A stretch of 64,000 bases of DNA from the NCBI RefSeq assembly GCF_014636865.1, contig NZ_BMER01000003.1, forward strand, positions 434,215 through 498,214, read 5' to 3'. A program made the translations under genes and the position numbers. Of the stretch, positions 51,447-64,000 are shown one piece after another. The notes under the pieces are model-generated. The model ran no database searches, was not told the origin of the DNA, and saw only the letters and a program-made list of their open reading frames with translations. Position 1 is the first letter of the stretch, and every line of letters starts with the position of its first letter. The DNA comes from Parapedobacter pyrenivorans. GTDB taxonomy: Bacteria; Bacteroidota; Bacteroidia; Sphingobacteriales; Sphingobacteriaceae.

Positions 51447-52421
51447 ATGAAATTTTTCAGCATGAGGTTTTACAAAGAAACCTTCAAACTACTTAGCGAC
51501 ACCTTTTCTGAGTTTTCTAAAGATAGCGCGATGAAGATGAGTGCCTCGCTTGCTTATTACACGATATTTTCCATCGCGCCCTTGCTACTCATCGTTATCT
51601 GGTTGGTGGGTTTCTTCTACGGCGAATTGTTGGCAGGTGAACAAGATGCACAGACTGAGGTCTTCGAGGAATTTGCTCATCTCTTCGGATCGGATACGGC
51701 AGCTCAGATTCAGCAGATCATCAAGAACATCAGTGTTTCCAACAAATCGGGTATTGGCATTGCTATAGGAGTAGGTACGTTGGTTGTGGGATCGACGACT
51801 ATATTCATGGAAATACAAGACTCGCTGAATAGGATATGGGGGGTACGTCCAAAGCCAAAAAAGGGTTGGCTGAAAATGTTGCTCAACCGTGCCCTTTCCC
51901 TTTCCATGGTGCTCGGCCTTGGCTTTCTGCTCATCGTATCCTTGATCGCAAATGGTATTGTGGTAGCCCTTAGTTCGCAAATCATGAACTATTTCCCAGA
52001 CATTTCCGTTATTGTCGTCGAATGGGTCAACATCGGTCTTACTTTTATCGTTATCACCTCGTTATTCGCCATTATTTTTCGGTTTCTTCCTGATGCCCGG
52101 ATGCGGTTTCGGGATGTGGTTGGCGGTGCCATCTTTACGGCCGCGCTTTTCATGCTCGGCCGATACCTGATTGCGCTTTACATGCAATATAGCGCACCCG
52201 CATCTGCATATGGAGCTGCTGGAGCCATCATTGTTTTATTGTTATGGATATACTATTCGGCCGCTATCCTATATTTCGGCGCTGAGTTCACCAAGGTTTA
52301 TGCACTGAAATACGGCAAGGGTGTCTGGCCCTCTTCATACGCCGTAAAGGTTGTGTTAAAAGAGCAAGAAGTGGAAGGTGAGCCCATTCGCTTGCCACCA
52401 AGTCAAAACAATTTGAGCTGA
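51447..52421 (+). CDS. YihY/virulence factor BrkB family membrane protein
   Basis: A 324-residue inner-membrane protein with about six membrane segments. Family signs are MKMSASLAYYTIFSIAPLLL, the middle NRIWGVRPKPKKGWLKMLLN, and the late ASAYGAAGAIIVLLLWIYYSAAILYFGAEF. The old label ribonuclease BN is wrong for this family; function is unsettled. Starts at 51447 and 51462 are possible. The end overlaps the dinB tail by 19 bp. Confidence 0.93.
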   Translation: MKFFSMRFYKETFKLLSDTFSEFSKDSAMKMSASLAYYTIFSIAPLLLIVIWLVGFFYGELLAGEQDAQTEVFEEFAHLFGSDTAAQIQQIIKNISVSNKSGIGIAIGVGTLVVGSTTIFMEIQDSLNRIWGVRPKPKKGWLKMLLNRALSLSMVLGLGFLLIVSLIANGIVVALSSQIMNYFPDISVIVVEWVNIGLTFIVITSLFAIIFRFLPDARMRFRDVVGGAIFTAALFMLGRYLIALYMQYSAPASAYGAAGAIIVLLLWIYYSAAILYFGAEFTKVYALKYGKGVWPSSYAVKVVLKEQEVEGEPIRLPPSQNNLS

Positions 52422-56307: not shown

Positions 56308-57801
56308 TTACAACAGGGGTGCCAATAAGCGGCATATGGAATCCAGGCCACGCTTCCATCTCGGCCGCATCAACCAAGTATCCATCGTCATGCGGGCACT
56401 GTTCAGCTTATCCTCCTCAAATTGGGCGTTCAATTGCCTGCACAGCTCTTCATCATTGATAATGGCACTGACTTCGAAATTGATGTAAAAACTGCGAATA
56501 TCCAAATTGACAGTACCAATAAAGGCTAGCTTGCCATCTATACAAATGGTTTTGGCATGCATAAATCCTTTTTCGTACAGGTACACCGATACACCTCGGG
56601 CCAAAAGGGGTTTCAAGAACGAAAATGACGCATGCTGCACGAGAAACGAATCCGATTGCGCGGGCAGCATGAGCTCAACCGCTACACCCGAAGCCGCAGC
56701 CAACTGGAGTGCGGTCGTCAGCTCATCACTGGGAATGAAATAGGGAGTACAGAGTTGAATCGTTTTTTCTGCCTCAGCTATACCAATCAATATCGCCTCC
56801 ATGTTGAATGGCGCAGCCGAGCCCGGATCACTGAAAGCAAAACTCACCGATGCAACGCCCGCAGAAATGCGATCCGCCATATAAAAATAATCGCTTCCGA
56901 GATTAAAGGGGCTGCCGTCGGCAAGGTGCCAATTCATCCAAAACTGTGCTTGGAGTACATTCACTGCTTCACCTTCGATTTTTACTGCGGTATCTCGCCA
57001 AAACAACGACTGGTTGTCGCCATTAATATATCGATCGCTGACATTAATGCCGCCAACAAAAGCCGTATGCCCGTCGATAATGGCTATTTTTCGATGATTT
57101 CGATAATTACTATTGGCCAATGAAGTAAAGGTCACCGGCAAGAACGTGACAAACTCGATACCTGAAGCTGTAAAGCGCGCCTGTAGCCTGCTGAGTGCCG
57201 GCGATCCAAACGCGTCTCCAATAATCCGAACTACCACACCAGCCGATGCTTTTTCTTCAAGCAAATCGATCATTGAGTTCCCAATCCCGTCGAGCTCAAA
57301 AATATAATACTCCAGATGAATATGATGCTGCGCAGCTTCCATCGCGTGGATAAGCGCCGGAAACTTCTGCTCACCATTGATCAACAATGTGGTTTTATTA
57401 TGCAGTGACGGCGGAGAAACCCGTTGATTTTTGAGAAATACAAACACCCTGCTTAGTGGGCCGAGCGTCTGTCCTAACTCCTGTAGTTTATCATCCATGA
57501 TCGGACTCAGCTCATCCCAAATCCGAATCAATTGGATCCGTTTTTCACGGTCTTGAACCCTGAAAACCTTCACTTTTTTGAATTTCTGGCCAAACAGGTA
57601 GTAGATGATCACCCCCAGGATGGGCAGGAAGACAATAACCATAATCCATGCGATGGTCTTGGCAGGGTTACGGTTTTCTATTAAGATCGTTGCAATGACG
57701 GCGAGGTAGATCAGCAACAGCGGTACCCAGTACCATTGGTAAATAAACGTACCCAACTCCTGAAGCGTGTTCACGATGGCTATCGTACCCCCTATATGCA
57801 T
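56308..57801 (-). CDS. Cardiolipin synthase-like phospholipase D family protein
   Basis: A membrane-bound phosphatidyltransferase that probably makes cardiolipin from phosphatidylglycerol. The 497-residue product has two N-terminal membrane helices (WYWVPLLLIYLAVIATILIE; TIAWIMVIVFLPILGVIIYY) and two HKD motifs: H236/K238/D243 in NHRKIAIIDG and H415/K417/D422 in MHAKTICIDG. An in-frame TTG at 57807 could also start it. It is last in the four-gene operon, 8 bp after the ATP-grasp gene; a link between lipid synthesis and the peptide-type genes is unclear. Confidence 0.92.
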   Translation of the reverse strand: MHIGGTIAIVNTLQELGTFIYQWYWVPLLLIYLAVIATILIENRNPAKTIAWIMVIVFLPILGVIIYYLFGQKFKKVKVFRVQDREKRIQLIRIWDELSPIMDDKLQELGQTLGPLSRVFVFLKNQRVSPPSLHNKTTLLINGEQKFPALIHAMEAAQHHIHLEYYIFELDGIGNSMIDLLEEKASAGVVVRIIGDAFGSPALSRLQARFTASGIEFVTFLPVTFTSLANSNYRNHRKIAIIDGHTAFVGGINVSDRYINGDNQSLFWRDTAVKIEGEAVNVLQAQFWMNWHLADGSPFNLGSDYFYMADRISAGVASVSFAFSDPGSAAPFNMEAILIGIAEAEKTIQLCTPYFIPSDELTTALQLAAASGVAVELMLPAQSDSFLVQHASFSFLKPLLARGVSVYLYEKGFMHAKTICIDGKLAFIGTVNLDIRSFYINFEVSAIINDEELCRQLNAQFEEDKLNSARMTMDTWLMRPRWKRGLDSICRLLAPLL

Positions 57802-57809
57802 AACCAAAC

Positions 57810-58817
57810 TTAGTCATTCCGGGTCACATCTCCTACTTTTTTTTCTACCGCCGTAATCACGTCTTCCATAAAATCCACACCGTGAAATTCACTCGCATGT
57901 ATGAGCCCGCCCGGACTGAATACATTGATTTCCATCAACTTATCACCCACAATATCCAAGCCTACCAAAAACATCCCATCCTGCCGCAACAACGGCCCTA
58001 CCGTGTCTATGATCGCCTGCATTTCTTTATTCATGGTTGCCCGCTTGGCTTTGGCTCCCTGGTGGATGTTGCTCCGGATCTCCCCCGCCTGTTGTACACG
58101 TTGGATGGCGGCGACCTTACCGTCTTTGATGATGGGTTCCCCATCCATCAGAAAAAGGCGGATATCCCCCTTTTTCGCAGCCGGCAGGTATTCCTGCGCA
58201 ATGGCGAATCCATCCCGGCATATCGCCTCCACAATCTGTTTGCGATTCTTATCGTCTTTTTTATCGACAAGAAATACATTTTTCCCGCCCGATCCTTTCA
58301 ATGGCTTCAAAATGATCCGATGGTTTTGGGCACGATAAAATGCCTCCACATCAGCCATGTTACGGGTAATGACTGATTGGGGCCGTACAGATTCGGGGAA
58401 ATATTGCAAATACATTTTATTGGAAGCCTTTATCAGTCCGTCCGGGCTGTTTAACACCAATACCCCCTGTTGGCTGGCCAACTGTCCAAACAATACACCA
58501 GCATCCTGTGCCCAGGGGCGCTTTTCCATATCCGCAGCCGGATCATTACGCAGCCACAACACGTCCCAGTTTTTCGAGCTTGTCAGTTCTTTCTCCGTCT
58601 CAACCACCGCTTCCAGAAACGTATGCAACGAGCGAAACTCACGGTCTGGCACCTTGCGGCAATGCGCCCCAATCCTACCATCGGCTTGGTATACCAGATC
58701 CCCTACCCCGGCGTAGTAAACCGTGTGGCCGCGCTTATGCGCTTCATAGGCCAAGGCGGTAGTGGTATACCCCGCCGATTCTTTACGTACTTGATTGACA
58801 ACGAATGTGATAGTCAT
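57810..58817 (-). CDS. Glutathione synthase-like ATP-grasp ligase
   Basis: A 335-residue ATP-grasp enzyme that should join a carboxylate and an amine using ATP. Motifs are RIILKPLKGSGGKNVFLV, FAIAQEYLPAAKKGDIRLFL and the metal/substrate segment MEINVFSPGGLIHASEFHG, close to the EIN-SPxG pattern of GshB. No gamma-glutamylcysteine ligase is near, and the gene is locked to a QEGLA-peptidase and an FGase-family gene (8-14 bp gaps), so classic glutathione synthesis is doubtful. The family of paired TTL-type ligases is a tempting comparison. Confidence 0.86.
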   Translation of the reverse strand: MTITFVVNQVRKESAGYTTTALAYEAHKRGHTVYYAGVGDLVYQADGRIGAHCRKVPDREFRSLHTFLEAVVETEKELTSSKNWDVLWLRNDPAADMEKRPWAQDAGVLFGQLASQQGVLVLNSPDGLIKASNKMYLQYFPESVRPQSVITRNMADVEAFYRAQNHRIILKPLKGSGGKNVFLVDKKDDKNRKQIVEAICRDGFAIAQEYLPAAKKGDIRLFLMDGEPIIKDGKVAAIQRVQQAGEIRSNIHQGAKAKRATMNKEMQAIIDTVGPLLRQDGMFLVGLDIVGDKLMEINVFSPGGLIHASEFHGVDFMEDVITAVEKKVGDVTRND

Positions 58818-58825
58818 ATATTTTA

Positions 58826-60673
58826 CTAATTAATCATCTTAAAAACGCTACCGCTCTTTTTGATTTCATTGATTTTGGTGATGTAGGGCTCTTCCAAAAA
58901 CTTCGGCCGTATCGGCGATGGGCTCAATAGCTGCCGGTGCATCAGTTCCTCGATAATAGGGAGGTAATCCTGCCTGATCTTGCCGACCAGCAGCTGTGAA
59001 ATATCTTTACCCTGTTTGATATATTCGATTACATTCAATAGGCCCTTGAGGTACACGGCATCTTTCGTGAGTCCGCCGCCGCGGTAAACACGCATCGTGA
59101 TGTGAAAAGCGGCTTCGTGTTTAAATCCGTATTTATCGGTGAGGATATCAAATGTATCTGCAAAAGAATTCCCTGCCAGCATACTATGCACCACCACTAC
59201 GCGGGCAGCCAATATACGCATGCGTTGGTTGGTAAGTCCACCCGCCATATATTCACTAAGCACGGCCAGCCCTTCCTGCAGTTGCTCATACCCCGGCACC
59301 CCCACATAGAATAGCTTGAACGGCTGTGCCATACCATTGTAGTACGTGGCCACATGCGTGCCCACCTCATGCTGGAGCAAGGCAAATGCACGGTCCTTGG
59401 ATATGCGGTAACGGCTACTGATGTTGAGCGTACCGCGGGATACCATCACGCCCTCCACATCGTCTCGTACCCGTACCGCGGTAGACACGGCATCGTATTG
59501 CTGTTTCAGGTATTGCAACTCGACCTTAGCCAACGCCGCAAACGCATCGGCGTCGAGCATTTCGCGTTCCAAAGGAGGGTGTTGGGGCTCCGAAGCTACT
59601 AAAATGGCACGGGCAGTCTCCAGCAAGGTTTCCTCAATATTACCGAAAAGCTGCTGGCTGCTGTAGAGAAAATCCGGCTTTTCCCGATCACTCAGCATGT
59701 TGAGCATCCGATCCACTTCTTTCCTTTTGTCTCGGAAAAGGTACGCGATGGTAGGGTCGGAAATGTCCTCAATAGGAAGATTATACAACTTCCGTTTAAT
59801 GAGTTCGGGGTCTATGGGCATGGGCCGGTAGTGAAATACGGGGTTTTTACGAAATTTGCTCTTAGCGAAGCTTTTCCACGCCTCCTGCGCATTTATCGGT
59901 GTAACCAACAGCAGAAAATCAAACTGGTTGCTGTACTCCGCTAATTTCTCGTCGATTACCCCCACCCCCTCGTGCAACTCCGTAGTGCCCAGCATCTCAA
60001 AGTGTGCCGCACTGTACGACGTTTTCATCCGCACAAACTCAAAGAAGCTTTTTCGTAGCGCTTTTCCGAAACTCTCGCGCAATTCCCTCAAAAATAATGG
60101 AAAAGGGGTACCTGTTTGCTGGTTGATATAAATGGGGGTGATTTCAAGTCCAATAACGATAATTTCACTTTTCCGTGCTTCTTCTACATTGAACAGCGCA
60201 TCATAGTAAGGTGGCGAAGGCATCCGTTTATCTTTCTCCAGCTCAACCTCGATACCCGGCACCTGCGTGAGGTGTATATTCTGTAACTCCGACTGCAATT
60301 TCTCCGCAACGCTAAGCGCACTCTTTTGACTGATGTGGATCGAAAACGTGGGTGAATCCGCCCGATCCGACAACCAGACCTCCAAGAGCATAAATCCACC
60401 GAATTTATCCGCCATAGCGGCCGCAATTTCCCGGATGATCGGGGTCACCGCACATTCATCGGTATCTGAGGCGACCAGGTAAGCCGACTCGGTCTTGCCG
60501 AGGGTTGATGTAAATGCGTCTTCACCATTTGGCGGTACGCGGTACACGAGTAAATAAGGAACTGGCCTATCCATATGGAGTTGACCATCACAGGGTAACG
60601 TTACGTGCAACGGATTGCCTTTCCGTAACTTATCGAGTATGCGATTAATATGCTTCTTTGTATCAGTGGCCAT
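58826..60673 (-). CDS. QEGLA-motif metallopeptidase (DUF1704, tyrosine carboxypeptidase-like)
   Basis: A 615-residue protein of the family labelled flavohemoglobin expression-modulating QEGLA motif protein. It has the zinc motif HEVGTH (435-440) and the QEGLA motif (466-470, E467 the likely third ligand). These match the eukaryotic MATCAP family, which removes C-terminal tyrosine from tubulin. The N-terminal 300 residues are a separate domain of unknown role. It lies 14 bp after the FGase gene and 8 bp before the ATP-grasp gene. The flavohemoglobin name rests on a phenotype and not on the reaction. Confidence 0.88.
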   Translation of the reverse strand: MATDTKKHINRILDKLRKGNPLHVTLPCDGQLHMDRPVPYLLVYRVPPNGEDAFTSTLGKTESAYLVASDTDECAVTPIIREIAAAMADKFGGFMLLEVWLSDRADSPTFSIHISQKSALSVAEKLQSELQNIHLTQVPGIEVELEKDKRMPSPPYYDALFNVEEARKSEIIVIGLEITPIYINQQTGTPFPLFLRELRESFGKALRKSFFEFVRMKTSYSAAHFEMLGTTELHEGVGVIDEKLAEYSNQFDFLLLVTPINAQEAWKSFAKSKFRKNPVFHYRPMPIDPELIKRKLYNLPIEDISDPTIAYLFRDKRKEVDRMLNMLSDREKPDFLYSSQQLFGNIEETLLETARAILVASEPQHPPLEREMLDADAFAALAKVELQYLKQQYDAVSTAVRVRDDVEGVMVSRGTLNISSRYRISKDRAFALLQHEVGTHVATYYNGMAQPFKLFYVGVPGYEQLQEGLAVLSEYMAGGLTNQRMRILAARVVVVHSMLAGNSFADTFDILTDKYGFKHEAAFHITMRVYRGGGLTKDAVYLKGLLNVIEYIKQGKDISQLLVGKIRQDYLPIIEELMHRQLLSPSPIRPKFLEEPYITKINEIKKSGSVFKMIN

Positions 60674-60687
60674 GCAGATCAGCGGGT

Positions 60688-61464
60688 TTAAGCGACGTCA
60701 TCAAGTTTATCCAACAGAAAAGGGATACACCCCATTAGCATGGACCTGATCTGATCGAGGTGTTGCACATCCAACCTACCCGTCCACTCGTCCATAAATG
60801 TCTTTTTGAATTCCAACGACAATACACATCCATACTCGCCGTAATGTTGGTTTATCCATTCGGAAAATCCGCCACCTTTGAACTTCACGTTCTCCCGTGC
60901 ATCCAGTAACCGGCCATCGATGTGATGATGAGCCAAGAATCTGGTCATCGAATGACCGAATGGTTTCCACCGTTCTTGGTTGCAGCCGGTTCCCACATTG
61001 ATTTCGGGGTTTTCATTGCGGTCTGCCATTTCCATAGGATGTTCACGCCGGTGATTGTAACTGTGGATATCCAAGACCACAAACTTTCCAAACTCCGCGA
61101 TGGTCCATTCGAGCAATTTCGCCATGTCGGCATAGAAACGATCATACGCTTTCAGCAACTGCGCCACCATTTCTTCCGGCAACGCCGACCGCCAAACCGT
61201 CAATCCCCATGCATCTTCGGGCTTGCGGTAGATGGCCTGTTCCCGCCTACGGTTGAGATCCGTTTGAAACCGCGATGTATCCACCCGGATGCGGCTTACG
61301 GGCAGATCAACCAGGTAAGCGGTATAAGGATCCTCTTCGCGGAAACGCTCGTGCTCTTGCAAGTTCATGTAATCAACCAATGGGGGTGCCAGCAAATGAC
61401 CATCATGGATAGCAGTCGCAATGATGGGGCTTTTTGTACGGTGTATGTGATAGACCAATTCCAT
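60688..61464 (-). CDS. N-formylglutamate amidohydrolase family protein
   Basis: A 258-residue zinc hydrolase of the FGase family, which cleaves N-formyl-glutamate in one route of histidine breakdown. Seen motifs are IATAIHDGHLLAP, DLNRRREQAIY, VVLDIHSYNHRR and the late VLSLEFKKTFMDEWTG. The start MELVYHIHRTKSP at 61464 is preferred: upstream codons in the same frame lack the fold. hutH is 54 kb away, so the substrate here is more likely one tied to the ATP-grasp/QEGLA pair. First gene of the operon. Confidence 0.85.
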   Translation of the reverse strand: MELVYHIHRTKSPIIATAIHDGHLLAPPLVDYMNLQEHERFREEDPYTAYLVDLPVSRIRVDTSRFQTDLNRRREQAIYRKPEDAWGLTVWRSALPEEMVAQLLKAYDRFYADMAKLLEWTIAEFGKFVVLDIHSYNHRREHPMEMADRNENPEINVGTGCNQERWKPFGHSMTRFLAHHHIDGRLLDARENVKFKGGGFSEWINQHYGEYGCVLSLEFKKTFMDEWTGRLDVQHLDQIRSMLMGCIPFLLDKLDDVA

Positions 61465-61675: not shown

Positions 61676-62848
61676 ATGAACACATCCATCAGATTTAACA
61701 CTAAAACACTAATATACATCATTTTATCCGCACCAATACTACTCTTTATTAGCAGTTGTTCCACAGGATCATCCAAAACAAATAACGACGAAAATAATGC
61801 GATTGCCTTGCCCGTGCAGCAAATAGACACCACCACGGCTGTTACCATAAAGGACTATCTGGGAACGATCGAAGGCAAAGTAAATGTAGAGATACGTCCA
61901 CAGGTTGAGGGCATTTTGGAAGAAATCTATGTAGATGAAGGCGCATTTGTCAAAGAAGGACAAAAACTTTTCAAAATCAATCCGCTACCTTATCAAGAGG
62001 AGTTGAATAATGCCCTCGCTAATGAAAATGTAGAGAAAGCAAAGCTTGAAAACGCCAAACTGGAAGTGGAACGGTTGAGGCCGCTAGTCGAAAACGATGT
62101 CATATCGGAGGTCCGCTTACGTACCGCCAAGTCCGATTTTGACGTTGCTAAGGCTTCGCTCGATCAAGCGTCGGCAGCCGTAGCCAGTGCCCGGATCAAC
62201 CTGGAGTTTACCACCATAAAGGCACCGGTCAGTGGTTTCATCGGTCTTATACCGAAGCGTATCGGAAACCTGGTCAGCGGAAGCGATCCACTTACCGAGC
62301 TTTCCGATATCAGTGAGGTGTATGTGTATTTTGCAATGAGCGAATCTGACTTCCTCTATTTCCGAAAAAAATACGGAAAGCAGGATTCTACCGCGCAAGT
62401 CACCGATACGATCCAGCTGATTCCCAACGTGTCACTCGTCATGGCCGATGGGACGGTATATCCCGAAACGGGCGTGGTTGACGCCATCAATGGCCAAGTA
62501 AACCGTACAACAGGAGCGATAAGCCTCCGCGCCACGTTCCCCAATAAAGATTTTGTGCTCCGCTCGGGCAATACGGGTACCATCAAGATGGAGGAACGCC
62601 AACCCGGCGTGATCACCGTTCCCCAGGTAGCAACCACGGAATTGCAGGACAAGGTTTTCGTCTATACCCTTTCAGCAGACAACAAAGTCAAGCAACAGGC
62701 CATCGAGGTAATCGGAAAAAGCGGCGATCAATACGTCGTCCAATCCGGAGTCAACGTGGGCGATCGGATCGCCCTTTCAGGGATGGACAAACTATCGGAC
62801 GGAATGGAAATCAAACCATTGAATGTTCCGGATACCTCGGCTAAATAA
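61676..62848 (+). CDS. RND efflux system periplasmic adaptor, lipoprotein
   Basis: The membrane-fusion subunit linking an RND pump to its outer-membrane channel. The 390-residue product has a lipoprotein signal (ILLFISSCST, C28), the biotinyl-like hairpin halves (VEIRPQVEGILEEIYVDEG; FTTIKAPVSGFIGLIPKRIG) around an alpha-hairpin, and the beta-barrel and membrane-proximal domains ending VGDRIALSGMDKLSDGMEI. AcrA/MexA type. The permease gene follows after 87 bp. Confidence 0.94.
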   Translation: MNTSIRFNTKTLIYIILSAPILLFISSCSTGSSKTNNDENNAIALPVQQIDTTTAVTIKDYLGTIEGKVNVEIRPQVEGILEEIYVDEGAFVKEGQKLFKINPLPYQEELNNALANENVEKAKLENAKLEVERLRPLVENDVISEVRLRTAKSDFDVAKASLDQASAAVASARINLEFTTIKAPVSGFIGLIPKRIGNLVSGSDPLTELSDISEVYVYFAMSESDFLYFRKKYGKQDSTAQVTDTIQLIPNVSLVMADGTVYPETGVVDAINGQVNRTTGAISLRATFPNKDFVLRSGNTGTIKMEERQPGVITVPQVATTELQDKVFVYTLSADNKVKQQAIEVIGKSGDQYVVQSGVNVGDRIALSGMDKLSDGMEIKPLNVPDTSAK

Positions 62849-62935
62849 AGCTGTCCAGTTTCAATTCCGTATTTAAATCATGCAGGTATGAGCCGCGCAT
62901 CTGGCTAACGCATACCAGCCATAGAACGACGTATA

Positions 62936-64000
62936 ATGCTAAAAACATTCATCAATAGACCCGTATTGGCCACCGTTATTTCGATCCTGCTTGTTATCCT
63001 CGGATTGGTATCGATGTGGCAATTGCCGATTACCCGATTTCCTGAAATCGCCCCACCCAGCGTAACCGTTTCGACCTCCTATCCGGGGGCCAACGCCGAA
63101 ACCGTAGCCGGAGCAGTACTCCTGCCCATAGAGGAAGCGATCAATGGCGTCCCCAATATGGCCTATATCCGCTCATCAGCCACCAACTCGGGCTCCGGTA
63201 ACGTCACCGTGTTCTTCAAAACAGGCACAGATCCCAATCAGGCATCGGTAAACGTGCAGACGCGTGTCTCCAAAGCAAATGCCCGTATTCCCGCTGAAGT
63301 GATCGAATCGGGCATTACCGTGGAGCCCCGTCAAAGTGGGATTATCATGACCATCAATATTTTCAGCGACCATCCGGATACCCTCTATGATGAGACATTC
63401 CTGCAAGCCTATGCACAGATCAACCTCATGCGTGAACTCTCCCGCGTAGATGGTGTTGGTGAAGTGCGGCGCGTAGGCGCGCGTGACTATTCCATCCGTA
63501 CCTGGCTCAATCCGGAAAAAATGGCGGCCTACGGATTGATTCCCCAAGATATACGGGATGCCATCCGCGATCAAAATTTTGAAATCGCACCAGGAAAATT
63601 CGGTGAAACATCCGATGAGGCCTTCGAAACCATCCTGCGGCACAAGGGTAGGTTTACCCTGCCCGAAGAATTCGAACAGATCGTGATCAAAACTAATGAG
63701 GACGGATCCGTGCTTTACCTCAAAGACATTGCCCGTACCGAACTCGGTGCCACCAACCTGGGTAGCGACAACAAGGTAAACGGGTATCCGGGCCTTACCT
63801 TGAATATTCTTCAAACCAGCGGCTCCAACGCCCGAGAAATCGACATTCAGATACGCGATGTATTGGAGCGACTGGCTGCGCACTTTCCAGATCACGTCCA
63901 GTACGAAATATCCTATAGCGTACGTGATCAAATCGACGAGTCGATCAGCCAAGTACAACATACCATCTTTGAGGCCTTTATATTGGTCTTTATTATCGTA
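62936..64000 (+). CDS. RND efflux permease (AcrB-like), truncated by the window edge
   Basis: The first 355 residues of an inner-membrane hydrophobe/amphiphile exporter. The reading frame is open from ATG 62936 to the last base. The opening MLKTFINRPVLATVISILLV is the family first membrane helix, followed by LPITRFPEIAPPSVTVST, YPGANAETV, NVQTRVSKANARIPAEV and the PN1-PC2 style ILQTSGSNAREI. The window ends at the start of the second membrane segment (ILVFIIV). It is the partner of the adaptor upstream. An outer-membrane factor may follow outside the window. Confidence 0.95.
   Translation, partial: MLKTFINRPVLATVISILLVILGLVSMWQLPITRFPEIAPPSVTVSTSYPGANAETVAGAVLLPIEEAINGVPNMAYIRSSATNSGSGNVTVFFKTGTDPNQASVNVQTRVSKANARIPAEVIESGITVEPRQSGIIMTINIFSDHPDTLYDETFLQAYAQINLMRELSRVDGVGEVRRVGARDYSIRTWLNPEKMAAYGLIPQDIRDAIRDQNFEIAPGKFGETSDEAFETILRHKGRFTLPEEFEQIVIKTNEDGSVLYLKDIARTELGATNLGSDNKVNGYPGLTLNILQTSGSNAREIDIQIRDVLERLAAHFPDHVQYEISYSVRDQIDESISQVQHTIFEAFILVFIIV

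What the first reader, a model, noticed from the sequence alone, without database searches (positions are those of the whole stretch)
56308..61464. FGase - QEGLA peptidase - ATP-grasp operon: possible bacterial amino-acid ligation and removal cycle
Seen: three genes with 14- and 8-bp gaps encode an FGase-family zinc hydrolase, a QEGLA/DUF1704 protein with HEVGTH (435-440) and QEGLA (466-470), and a GshB-like ATP-grasp, followed 8 bp later by a PLD-type synthase. Known: eukaryotic MATCAP enzymes with the same HExxxH + QEGLA pattern remove C-terminal Tyr from tubulin, and tubulin tyrosine ligase, which puts it back, is itself an ATP-grasp enzyme. Inference: the bacterial trio may attach an amino acid or peptide to a carboxylate and take it off, with the FGase-like enzyme trimming an acyl or peptide group. 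The current labels (glutathione synthase, flavohemoglobin modulation, formylglutamate hydrolysis) do not explain why the genes travel together.
Basis: partly seen in the sequence, partly recalled or inferred. Interest (0 to 1): 0.82.

Follow-up and report, generated by a model that had tools for sequence, protein, structure and literature searches.

The report
Bacterial peptide ligase and carboxypeptidase operon
Three neighbouring genes that stay together in many bacterial groups appear to encode an enzyme that joins an amino acid to something and two enzymes that take such bonds apart, one of them related to the human enzyme that trims tubulin; a published low-salt experiment hints that the set helps cells cope with dilute surroundings.

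Summary
On the minus strand lie FGase (60688-61464), QEGLA/MATCAP (58826-60673) and a GshB-like ATP-grasp (57810-58817), in a Parapedobacter-like genome. In 90 QEGLA loci, FGase is present in 79 and the ATP-grasp in 89. Five of the 11 FGase-less loci carry an AstE/aspartoacylase-type protein; none of the other 79 does. A tree separates operon-linked QEGLA proteins from a lone gammaproteobacterial kind. The first ~235 residues of QEGLA look like a decayed FGase domain; some genomes fuse an intact FGase to MATCAP. The model's best solved match is human MATCAP. 'Glutathione synthase' is not supported: neither gshA family tested occurs in this genome. The cardiolipin synthase is not part of the module. 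Best reading: a ligate-and-remove module for an acidic, probably glutamate-containing, peptide or tail. A Photobacterium pair matched by name is 27-38-fold up at low salt, and MscS channels lie nearby more often than expected (post hoc); a hypo-osmotic role is plausible, unproven. Substrate and direction are unknown. I found no description in the library searched; a 2009 amidoligase survey was not readable.

The parts
60688..61464 (-). FGase-family hydrolase, 258 aa; not of the HutG equivalog group
   Evidence: PF05013 77.6 bits; TIGR02017 25 bits against 279; H20, G22, E43, E44, D45, S64, R65, F66, D69, N71, R72, D132, H134, E218 invariant in 30 rows
58826..60673 (-). QEGLA protein, 615 aa: degenerate FGase-like N-terminal domain plus MATCAP-type metallopeptidase domain
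   Evidence: PF08014 and TIGR02421; AF2 model pLDDT 91.9; Foldseek best match human MATCAP 7z5g, E 4.6e-9; N-terminal profile against FGase profile 95.5%, four control comparisons 0.1-2.2%
59969..60673 (-). N-terminal 235 residues: decayed FGase domain; in the alignment FGase D132 falls on E98, H134 on W100, N137 on D103, R140 on D106
   Evidence: FGase 2q7s is listed among the Foldseek matches at E 2.8e-3, aligned range not shown
59354..59371 (-). HEVGTH zinc motif, residues 435-440
59264..59278 (-). QEGLA motif, residues 466-470 (E467 presumed third zinc ligand)
   Evidence: lines up with EEGLA of human MATCAP
57810..58817 (-). GshB/RimK-like ATP-grasp ligase, 335 aa, with SPGG where E. coli GshB has SPTC
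   Evidence: PF02955 166 bits; PRK12458 398 (cut-off 408); TIGR01380 208 (cut-off 299); alignment to 1gsa
56308..57801 (-). cardiolipin synthase (PLD type): adjacent, judged not part of the conserved module
   Evidence: TIGR04265 407 bits; 4 of 5 Parapedobacter loci, 0 of 85 other loci

Best explanation
The three genes are a ligase-hydrolase module. The ATP-grasp activates a carboxylate as acyl phosphate and couples it to an amino acid or peptide amine. The MATCAP domain, a zinc carboxypeptidase, removes C-terminal residues from that product or a related one. The FGase-type enzyme (or an AstE/AspA-type replacement) hydrolyses an N-acyl amide of an acidic amino acid in the same pathway. The target is most likely a glutamate-rich peptide or peptide tail, and the module most likely serves ion and osmotic acclimation, above all at low osmolarity. 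Shown here: gene identity, linkage, fusions, deacylase swap, conserved catalytic motifs. Inferred: activities, substrate, direction, physiological role.
For: Linkage: FGase in 79 of 90 and ATP-grasp in 89 of 90 loci; the trio on plasmids of Sinorhizobium meliloti, Roseateles, Aminobacter and Pararhizobium. Fusion: intact FGase joined to MATCAP in L016, Photobacterium L109 and L142-L144, and an FGase-like N-terminal profile in the long QEGLA proteins. Deacylase swap: AstE_AspA in 5 of 11 FGase-less loci, 0 of 79 others. MATCAP fold with the zinc motif. Not ordinary glutathione synthesis. Osmotic lead: adjacent P. damselae locus tags named GshB (38.4-fold) and QEGLA (27.5-fold) up at 1% versus 3% NaCl (PMC10308900, passages); MscS within 10 kb of the module in at least 6 of 47 genomes, with a seventh near an FGase-ATP-grasp set without QEGLA, 1.17-1.45 expected; sodium:dicarboxylate symporter beside the B-type ATP-grasp in 6 of 7 B-type loci. 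Precedent: RimK makes poly-alpha-glutamate and RimB cuts polyglutamate (PMC11957791, abstract and one section).
Against: No activity, substrate or product is known. Glutamate is argued only from the families' characterised members. The MscS link was seen first and tested afterwards, in a minority of genomes. The P. damselae genes were not seen as sequence; they are matched by name, adjacent tags and a related Photobacterium locus, and the paper reads them as part of a virulence programme. The Photobacterium L109 stretch shows no symporter. Three FGase-less loci with upstream sequence (L084, L101, L103) have no AstE match either, and L182 has FGase and two ATP-grasps without QEGLA, so the three are not strictly bound. 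Inducing all steps together would be futile without further control.
Confidence: 0.42

Rival explanations
1. A biosynthetic pathway: one or more ATP-grasp ligases build a small acylated oligopeptide (cofactor, solute or natural product), and QEGLA and FGase/AstE are maturation steps, not reversal.
For: Extra ATP-grasp or QEGLA copies in L062, L068, L069, L073, L080, L082 and two ATP-grasps with FGase but no QEGLA in L182 look like added chain-building steps. An ABC-transporter cluster recurs in 14 loci (2 outside the close relatives), RND-pump clusters in 10 each (2 and 1 outside) and a small GNAT acetyltransferase in 5 (1 outside).
Against: Those exporter and acetyltransferase clusters are nearly confined to close relatives of the window's genus, so they may be shared ancestry only; no conserved small ORF was found within 1.2 kb of the module.
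Confidence: 0.29
2. Reversible protein-tail modification, like RimK/RimB on ribosomal protein S6 or tyrosination of tubulin: the ATP-grasp adds residues to a protein C-terminus and the MATCAP domain removes them.
For: MATCAP relatives act on protein tails (PMC10499314, passages); RimK/RimB is a bacterial precedent; RimK is also up 52-fold at low salt in P. damselae.
Against: No conserved small target gene beside the module; an N-acyl deacylase is not needed for a tail cycle; this genome already has a RimB-RimK pair.
Confidence: 0.18
3. An ordinary accessory glutathione pathway: the ATP-grasp makes glutathione and the other two genes recycle related compounds.
For: Public annotation calls the gene glutathione synthase; the best PDB sequence match is E. 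coli GshB.
Against: No PF04262 or PF04107 match in this genome; TIGR01380 over its cut-off in only 4 of 57 module-bearing genomes; SPGG in place of SPTC.
Confidence: 0.06
4. Envelope or cell-wall peptide turnover.
For: Foldseek also lists N-acetylmuramoyl-L-alanine amidases and poly-gamma-glutamate hydrolase for the model, at E 0.011 and above; hypo-osmotic stress strains the wall (established knowledge).
Against: I recognised no wall genes among the clusters shared by three or more distant loci, judged mostly by eye; signal peptides were not tested.
Confidence: 0.05

Closest known systems
Eukaryotic MATCAP/TMCP carboxypeptidases (KIAA0895L)
   Same: PF08014 domain, HE[IV]GTH plus xEGLA, matching predicted fold
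   Different: The bacterial protein carries a decayed FGase-like domain and sits beside a ligase; substrate unknown; the tree cannot place the human protein
RimK-RimB (ATP-grasp and retropepsin)
   Same: ATP-grasp ligase paired with a peptidase (PMC11957791, abstract and one section)
   Different: Peptidase is a zinc MATCAP type, not aspartic; a deacylase is added; the window's genome has a separate RimB-RimK pair
Rlo operon of Pseudomonas aeruginosa
   Same: Peptidase gene with an ATP-grasp gene; the RloA proteases are needed for hypo-osmotic tolerance, and loss of RloB or RloC rescues the protease mutants (PMC12239564, passages)
   Different: Different, secreted peptidase and a 7TM partner; no FGase
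Anbu operon
   Same: GshB-like ATP-grasp with a presumed hydrolase, function unproven (PMC6376114, passages)
   Different: Partners are Anbu, alphaE and a transglutaminase-like protein
Glutathione synthase GshB
   Same: Pfam domains and conserved ATP-grasp core
   Different: Below the equivalog cut-off, changed SPTC loop, neither tested gshA family in this genome
HutG-type N-formylglutamate deformylase
   Same: Pfam family PF05013
   Different: 25 bits against a HutG cut-off of 279; conserved beside a ligase and a peptidase

Membership tests
MATCAP/QEGLA peptidase (PF08014, TIGR02421) | HExxxH with xEGLA and score over cut-off | tested here: met
   306 and 349 bits; motif residues invariant in 49 rows
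MATCAP/QEGLA peptidase (PF08014, TIGR02421) | MATCAP fold | tested here: met
   7z5g E 4.6e-9, TM 0.68 by target length; the three matches under E 0.001 are all MATCAP
MATCAP/QEGLA peptidase (PF08014, TIGR02421) | carboxypeptidase activity | not testable with these tools
   needs an enzyme assay
FGase (PF05013) | score over cut-off | tested here: met
   77.6 against 28.9 bits
FGase (PF05013) | identity of the metal ligands against a solved structure | tested here: inconclusive
   no credible solved relative by sequence; conserved H20 and H134 only suggest it
HutG N-formylglutamate deformylase | equivalog score TIGR02017 | tested here: not met
   25 against 278.75 bits
Glutathione synthase GshB | equivalog score TIGR01380 | tested here: not met
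   207-208 against 299 bits
Glutathione synthase GshB | a gamma-glutamylcysteine ligase in the genome | tested here: not met
   no PF04262 and no PF04107 match in G000; other families not tested
RimK-RimB system | retropepsin partner | tested here: not met
   partner is a MATCAP-type protein; RimB-RimK lies elsewhere in the genome (identified by eye)
Rlo system | RloB-type 7TM inactive transglutaminase in the operon | tested here: not met
   Pfam of the window's flanking genes gives PLD, HlyD and MG2-type domains only; rest of the genome not tested

The most novel reading that the evidence does not exclude
A widespread, undescribed glutamyl-peptide cycle for osmotic acclimation: at low osmolarity cells tie free glutamate into a peptide with the ATP-grasp, and release it with the MATCAP carboxypeptidase and the FGase/AstE deacylase; the tubulin tail-trimming enzymes of eukaryotes would then descend from the peptidase of such a bacterial module.
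Probability: 0.2. Interest if true: 0.85.

Novelty: new variant of a known kind. Interest (0 to 1): 0.6.

Why it matters
It gives a testable job to a protein family whose bacterial members bear a little-explained name (flavohemoglobin expression-modulating), questions a 'glutathione synthase' label that has been used to interpret expression data (PMC10308900, passages), and offers a bacterial comparison for the tubulin-trimming MATCAP enzymes. Sinorhizobium meliloti 1021 carries the set on pSymB, so it can be tested in a well-known laboratory strain.

Tried and rejected
Rejected: ordinary GshB; the cardiolipin synthase as a partner; linkage for all DUF1704 proteins (0 of 24 lone-kind regions have FGase or a same-strand ATP-grasp; L170 has an opposite-strand 79-bit match); a dedicated small peptide or carrier nearby (largest cluster 5 loci, overlapping other genes in one related group).

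Led nowhere: a single-sequence AF2 job on the N-terminal domain gave pLDDT 35. The FGase profile and two single FGase sequences found no credible solved relative. A tree with human MATCAP could not place it, end branch 5.2; profile scores to 7z5g were 54.5 (fused/short kind), 45 (long kind) and 28.9 bits (lone kind), which suggest but do not show that it is nearer the linked kinds. Foldseek ranks M32 carboxypeptidases (E 1.2e-3 to 1.8e-3) between MATCAP and the FGase 2q7s.

Literature: ten searches. I saw listings, which were capped (30 of 44; 15 of 62; 15 of 132; 10 of 21; 25 of 28), and abstracts' first lines. I found no description of the operon there. One Vibrio vulnificus paper lists VV2_1203 (COG3930) next to VV2_1204 'glutathione synthetase' in a table of specific genes, and VV1_0515 (COG3930) apart (PMC3091676, passages); the COG number for this family is recalled. 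Two ATP-grasp papers were searched for the terms without a find of the operon (PMC4431377, PMC8939145), and one MATCAP1 paper for bacteria without a hit (PMC13269789). Iyer et al. 2009 (PMC3268129) is not held and may mention the operon.

'Present' means within the fetched stretch. The AstE profile was built from the five finds themselves, so remoter ones could be missed. 40 regions from 39 of 54 gammaproteobacterial genomes were examined. The tree was a quick search; T_L179_4784 was labelled by locus and belongs to the B kind. The survey starts from QEGLA, so it cannot tell how often FGase and ATP-grasp occur without it; L182 is one case. In one search the tool's MscS list was cut off, so the observed number is a lower bound; the expectation of 1.17 uses a 20-kb window, and 25 kb gives 1.45; one of the seven genomes (G164) has FGase and two ATP-grasps but no QEGLA at that place, which leaves six (P 0.001 to 0.004, post hoc).
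Full report
OBSERVATION. The window holds, on the minus strand, FGase (60688-61464), QEGLA (58826-60673), an ATP-grasp (57810-58817) and a cardiolipin synthase (56308-57801), with gaps of 14, 8 and 8 bases. HEVGTH and QEGLA are at residues 435-440 and 466-470 as stated. Nearest named relatives are Parapedobacter, 80-83% identical over the whole QEGLA protein. The genome has one QEGLA, one FGase and two GSH-S_ATP matches.

LINKAGE. A survey of 148 genomes of the phylum found QEGLA in 10. Around the nine outside the window's genome, an ATP-grasp lies within the fetched 16-17 kb in nine of nine and FGase in eight of nine; in L016 FGase and QEGLA are one protein. Over these 80, the nine above and one contig of the viral collection, FGase is present in 79 of 90 and the ATP-grasp in 89 of 90; the one without (L099) ends just after QEGLA. 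L041 and L021 are the same contig. Of five annotated plasmid regions opened, four carry the three genes (Sinorhizobium, Roseateles, Aminobacter, Pararhizobium) and one, Pseudoalteromonas, has QEGLA alone. Sinorhizobium meliloti 1021 pSymB carries the trio. Against strict binding: contig C480 of genome G164 has FGase and two ATP-grasps but no QEGLA match (L182).

TWO KINDS OF QEGLA. PF08014 occurs in 54 of 369 gammaproteobacterial genomes. I examined 40 regions from 39 of them. Sixteen hold the linked kind: FGase adjacent or fused in 15, ATP-grasp adjacent in 15 (L179 begins inside QEGLA; L144 shows no ATP-grasp). Twenty-four hold a lone kind: none has FGase or a same-strand ATP-grasp (L170 has an opposite-strand 79-bit match), and no other neighbour cluster reaches more than three loci. 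A quick tree of 96 catalytic domains puts the 24 lone rows on one side of a branch with SH-aLRT 99, and splits the linked rows into a long A kind and a fused or short B kind. The lone consensus of 13 rows reads HEGWVH where the linked kinds read HE[VI]G[TV]H or similar.

DOMAINS. An AF2 model of the window QEGLA protein from 49 sequences has mean pLDDT 91.9. The only three Foldseek matches under E 0.001 are human MATCAP (best 7z5g, E 4.6e-9, TM 0.68 by target length); M32 carboxypeptidases follow, then the N-formylglutamate amidohydrolase 2q7s (E 2.8e-3). The aligned ranges are not shown, so its match to the N-terminal part is my inference. A profile comparison of the first 235 residues with the operon FGases gives 95.5% probability over 168 columns; four control comparisons give 0.1-2.2%. 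There FGase D132, H134, N137 and R140 fall on E98, W100, D103 and D106, and the HxG and SRF-D-NR parts are not covered, so the domain is judged catalytically dead. In Photobacterium sp. DA100 a B-type ATP-grasp is followed by one protein joining an FGase with DIHSYN to a MATCAP domain. Fusion and decay of FGase beside MATCAP argue that both work on one substrate or in one complex (inference).

DEACYLASE SWAP. Of 11 loci without FGase, five (L022, L087, L091, L098, L102) carry a protein with the AstE_AspA_cat domain beside QEGLA-ATP-grasp (Pfam on all five); none of the 79 FGase-bearing loci has a match to a profile of those five. L087, L091 and L102 share much gene order, so these are not five independent events. 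L070, L073 and L104 start at contig ends; L084, L101 and L103 have upstream sequence but neither deacylase. Characterised FGase and AstE/AspA enzymes hydrolyse N-acyl groups from acidic amino acids (established knowledge), hence the inferred N-acyl-Glu/Asp step.

NOT ORDINARY GLUTATHIONE SYNTHASE. The operon ATP-grasp resembles E. coli GshB most (1gsa), with RimK next; the GshB loop SPTC reads SPGG. It scores 207 bits against the GshB cut-off of 299, and only 4 of 57 module-bearing genomes have any match over that cut-off. No PF04262 or PF04107 match was found in the window's genome; among module-bearing genomes PF04262 matched 2 of 47 and PF04107 20 of 57, some of which may be other members of that family. 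A RimB-RimK-like pair lies elsewhere in the window's genome.

CONTEXT. Neighbour clusters include, by Pfam of one or two members each, MscS channels, a Castor/Pollux-type channel, CorA, MgtE, sigma-54 activators, an amino acid permease, BrkB/YihY proteins, and a sodium:dicarboxylate symporter beside the B-type ATP-grasp in six of the seven B-type loci (L016 lacks it). Close relatives also share ABC-transporter, RND-pump and small GNAT genes. As a control for MscS I counted all PF00924 matches in 47 module-bearing genomes: at least 9 genes in 7 genomes lie within 10 kb of a module-type ATP-grasp, against 1.19 genes in 1.17 genomes expected for 20 kb. Checking one place (L182) showed no QEGLA there, which leaves six genomes; with a 25-kb window 1.45 are expected, P 0.004 for six. 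The idea came from the same data, so this is post hoc. In Photobacterium damselae, adjacent locus tags A0J47_RS17020 (named GshB) and A0J47_RS17025 (named QEGLA) are up 38.4-fold and 27.5-fold at 1% against 3% NaCl (PMC10308900, passages). I did not see their sequences; I infer that they are the two-gene B version. The paper reads the response as a virulence programme.

MECHANISM. The best reading is a ligase with two hydrolases acting on an acidic, probably glutamate-containing, peptide or tail. RimK/RimB shows that bacteria pair an ATP-grasp with a peptidase and make poly-alpha-glutamate (PMC11957791, abstract and one section). In the Rlo operon the proteases are needed for hypo-osmotic tolerance and loss of the ATP-grasp RloC or of RloB rescues protease mutants (PMC12239564, passages). 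Eukaryotic TMCPs remove tyrosine and glutamates from tubulin tails (PMC10499314, passages). None of this shows what the present enzymes do.

NOVELTY. Ten library searches, several with capped listings, gave no description of this operon (Tried and rejected). A V. vulnificus gene table lists a COG3930 gene next to a 'glutathione synthetase' without comment in the passages seen (PMC3091676). A 2009 survey of amidoligases (PMC3268129) is not held and may mention it. I file it as a new variant of a known kind: ligase-peptidase modules are known, this enzyme set is not described in what I could search.

Noticed in passing
L062, L068, L069, L073, L080, L082: Extra copies of QEGLA and/or ATP-grasp genes in Planctomycetota, Verrucomicrobia, Deltaproteobacteria and Gemmatimonadota records.
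   Followed up: partly
L182 13716-16674: FGase followed by two ATP-grasps with no QEGLA match in the 19.8-kb contig, with two MscS matches 5-9 kb away.
   Followed up: partly
L020 6612-6938 and L093 6787-7119: A small 108-110 aa protein without a Pfam match and a rhodanese-type gene sit between the B-type ATP-grasp and FGase.
   Followed up: partly
L157-L178, L180, L181: Lone QEGLA proteins of Gammaproteobacteria with HEGWVH in place of HEVGTH and no widely shared partner.
   Followed up: partly
L085 8001-10615: Niabella locus in which QEGLA and the ATP-grasp fall into several reading frames, by decay or sequencing error.
   Followed up: no
window 61676-64000: RND efflux adaptor and pump genes divergent from the FGase gene.
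   Followed up: no
L023 2910-4362 (own genome): RimB-RimK-like pair elsewhere in the window's genome.
   Followed up: partly
window 51447-52421; L041 10862-11851; L108 4312-5328: BrkB/YihY membrane proteins (PF03631 in window and L041) lie some kilobases from the module in the window, downstream of it in Sphingobacterium, and directly beside FGase on an Aminobacter plasmid.
   Followed up: partly
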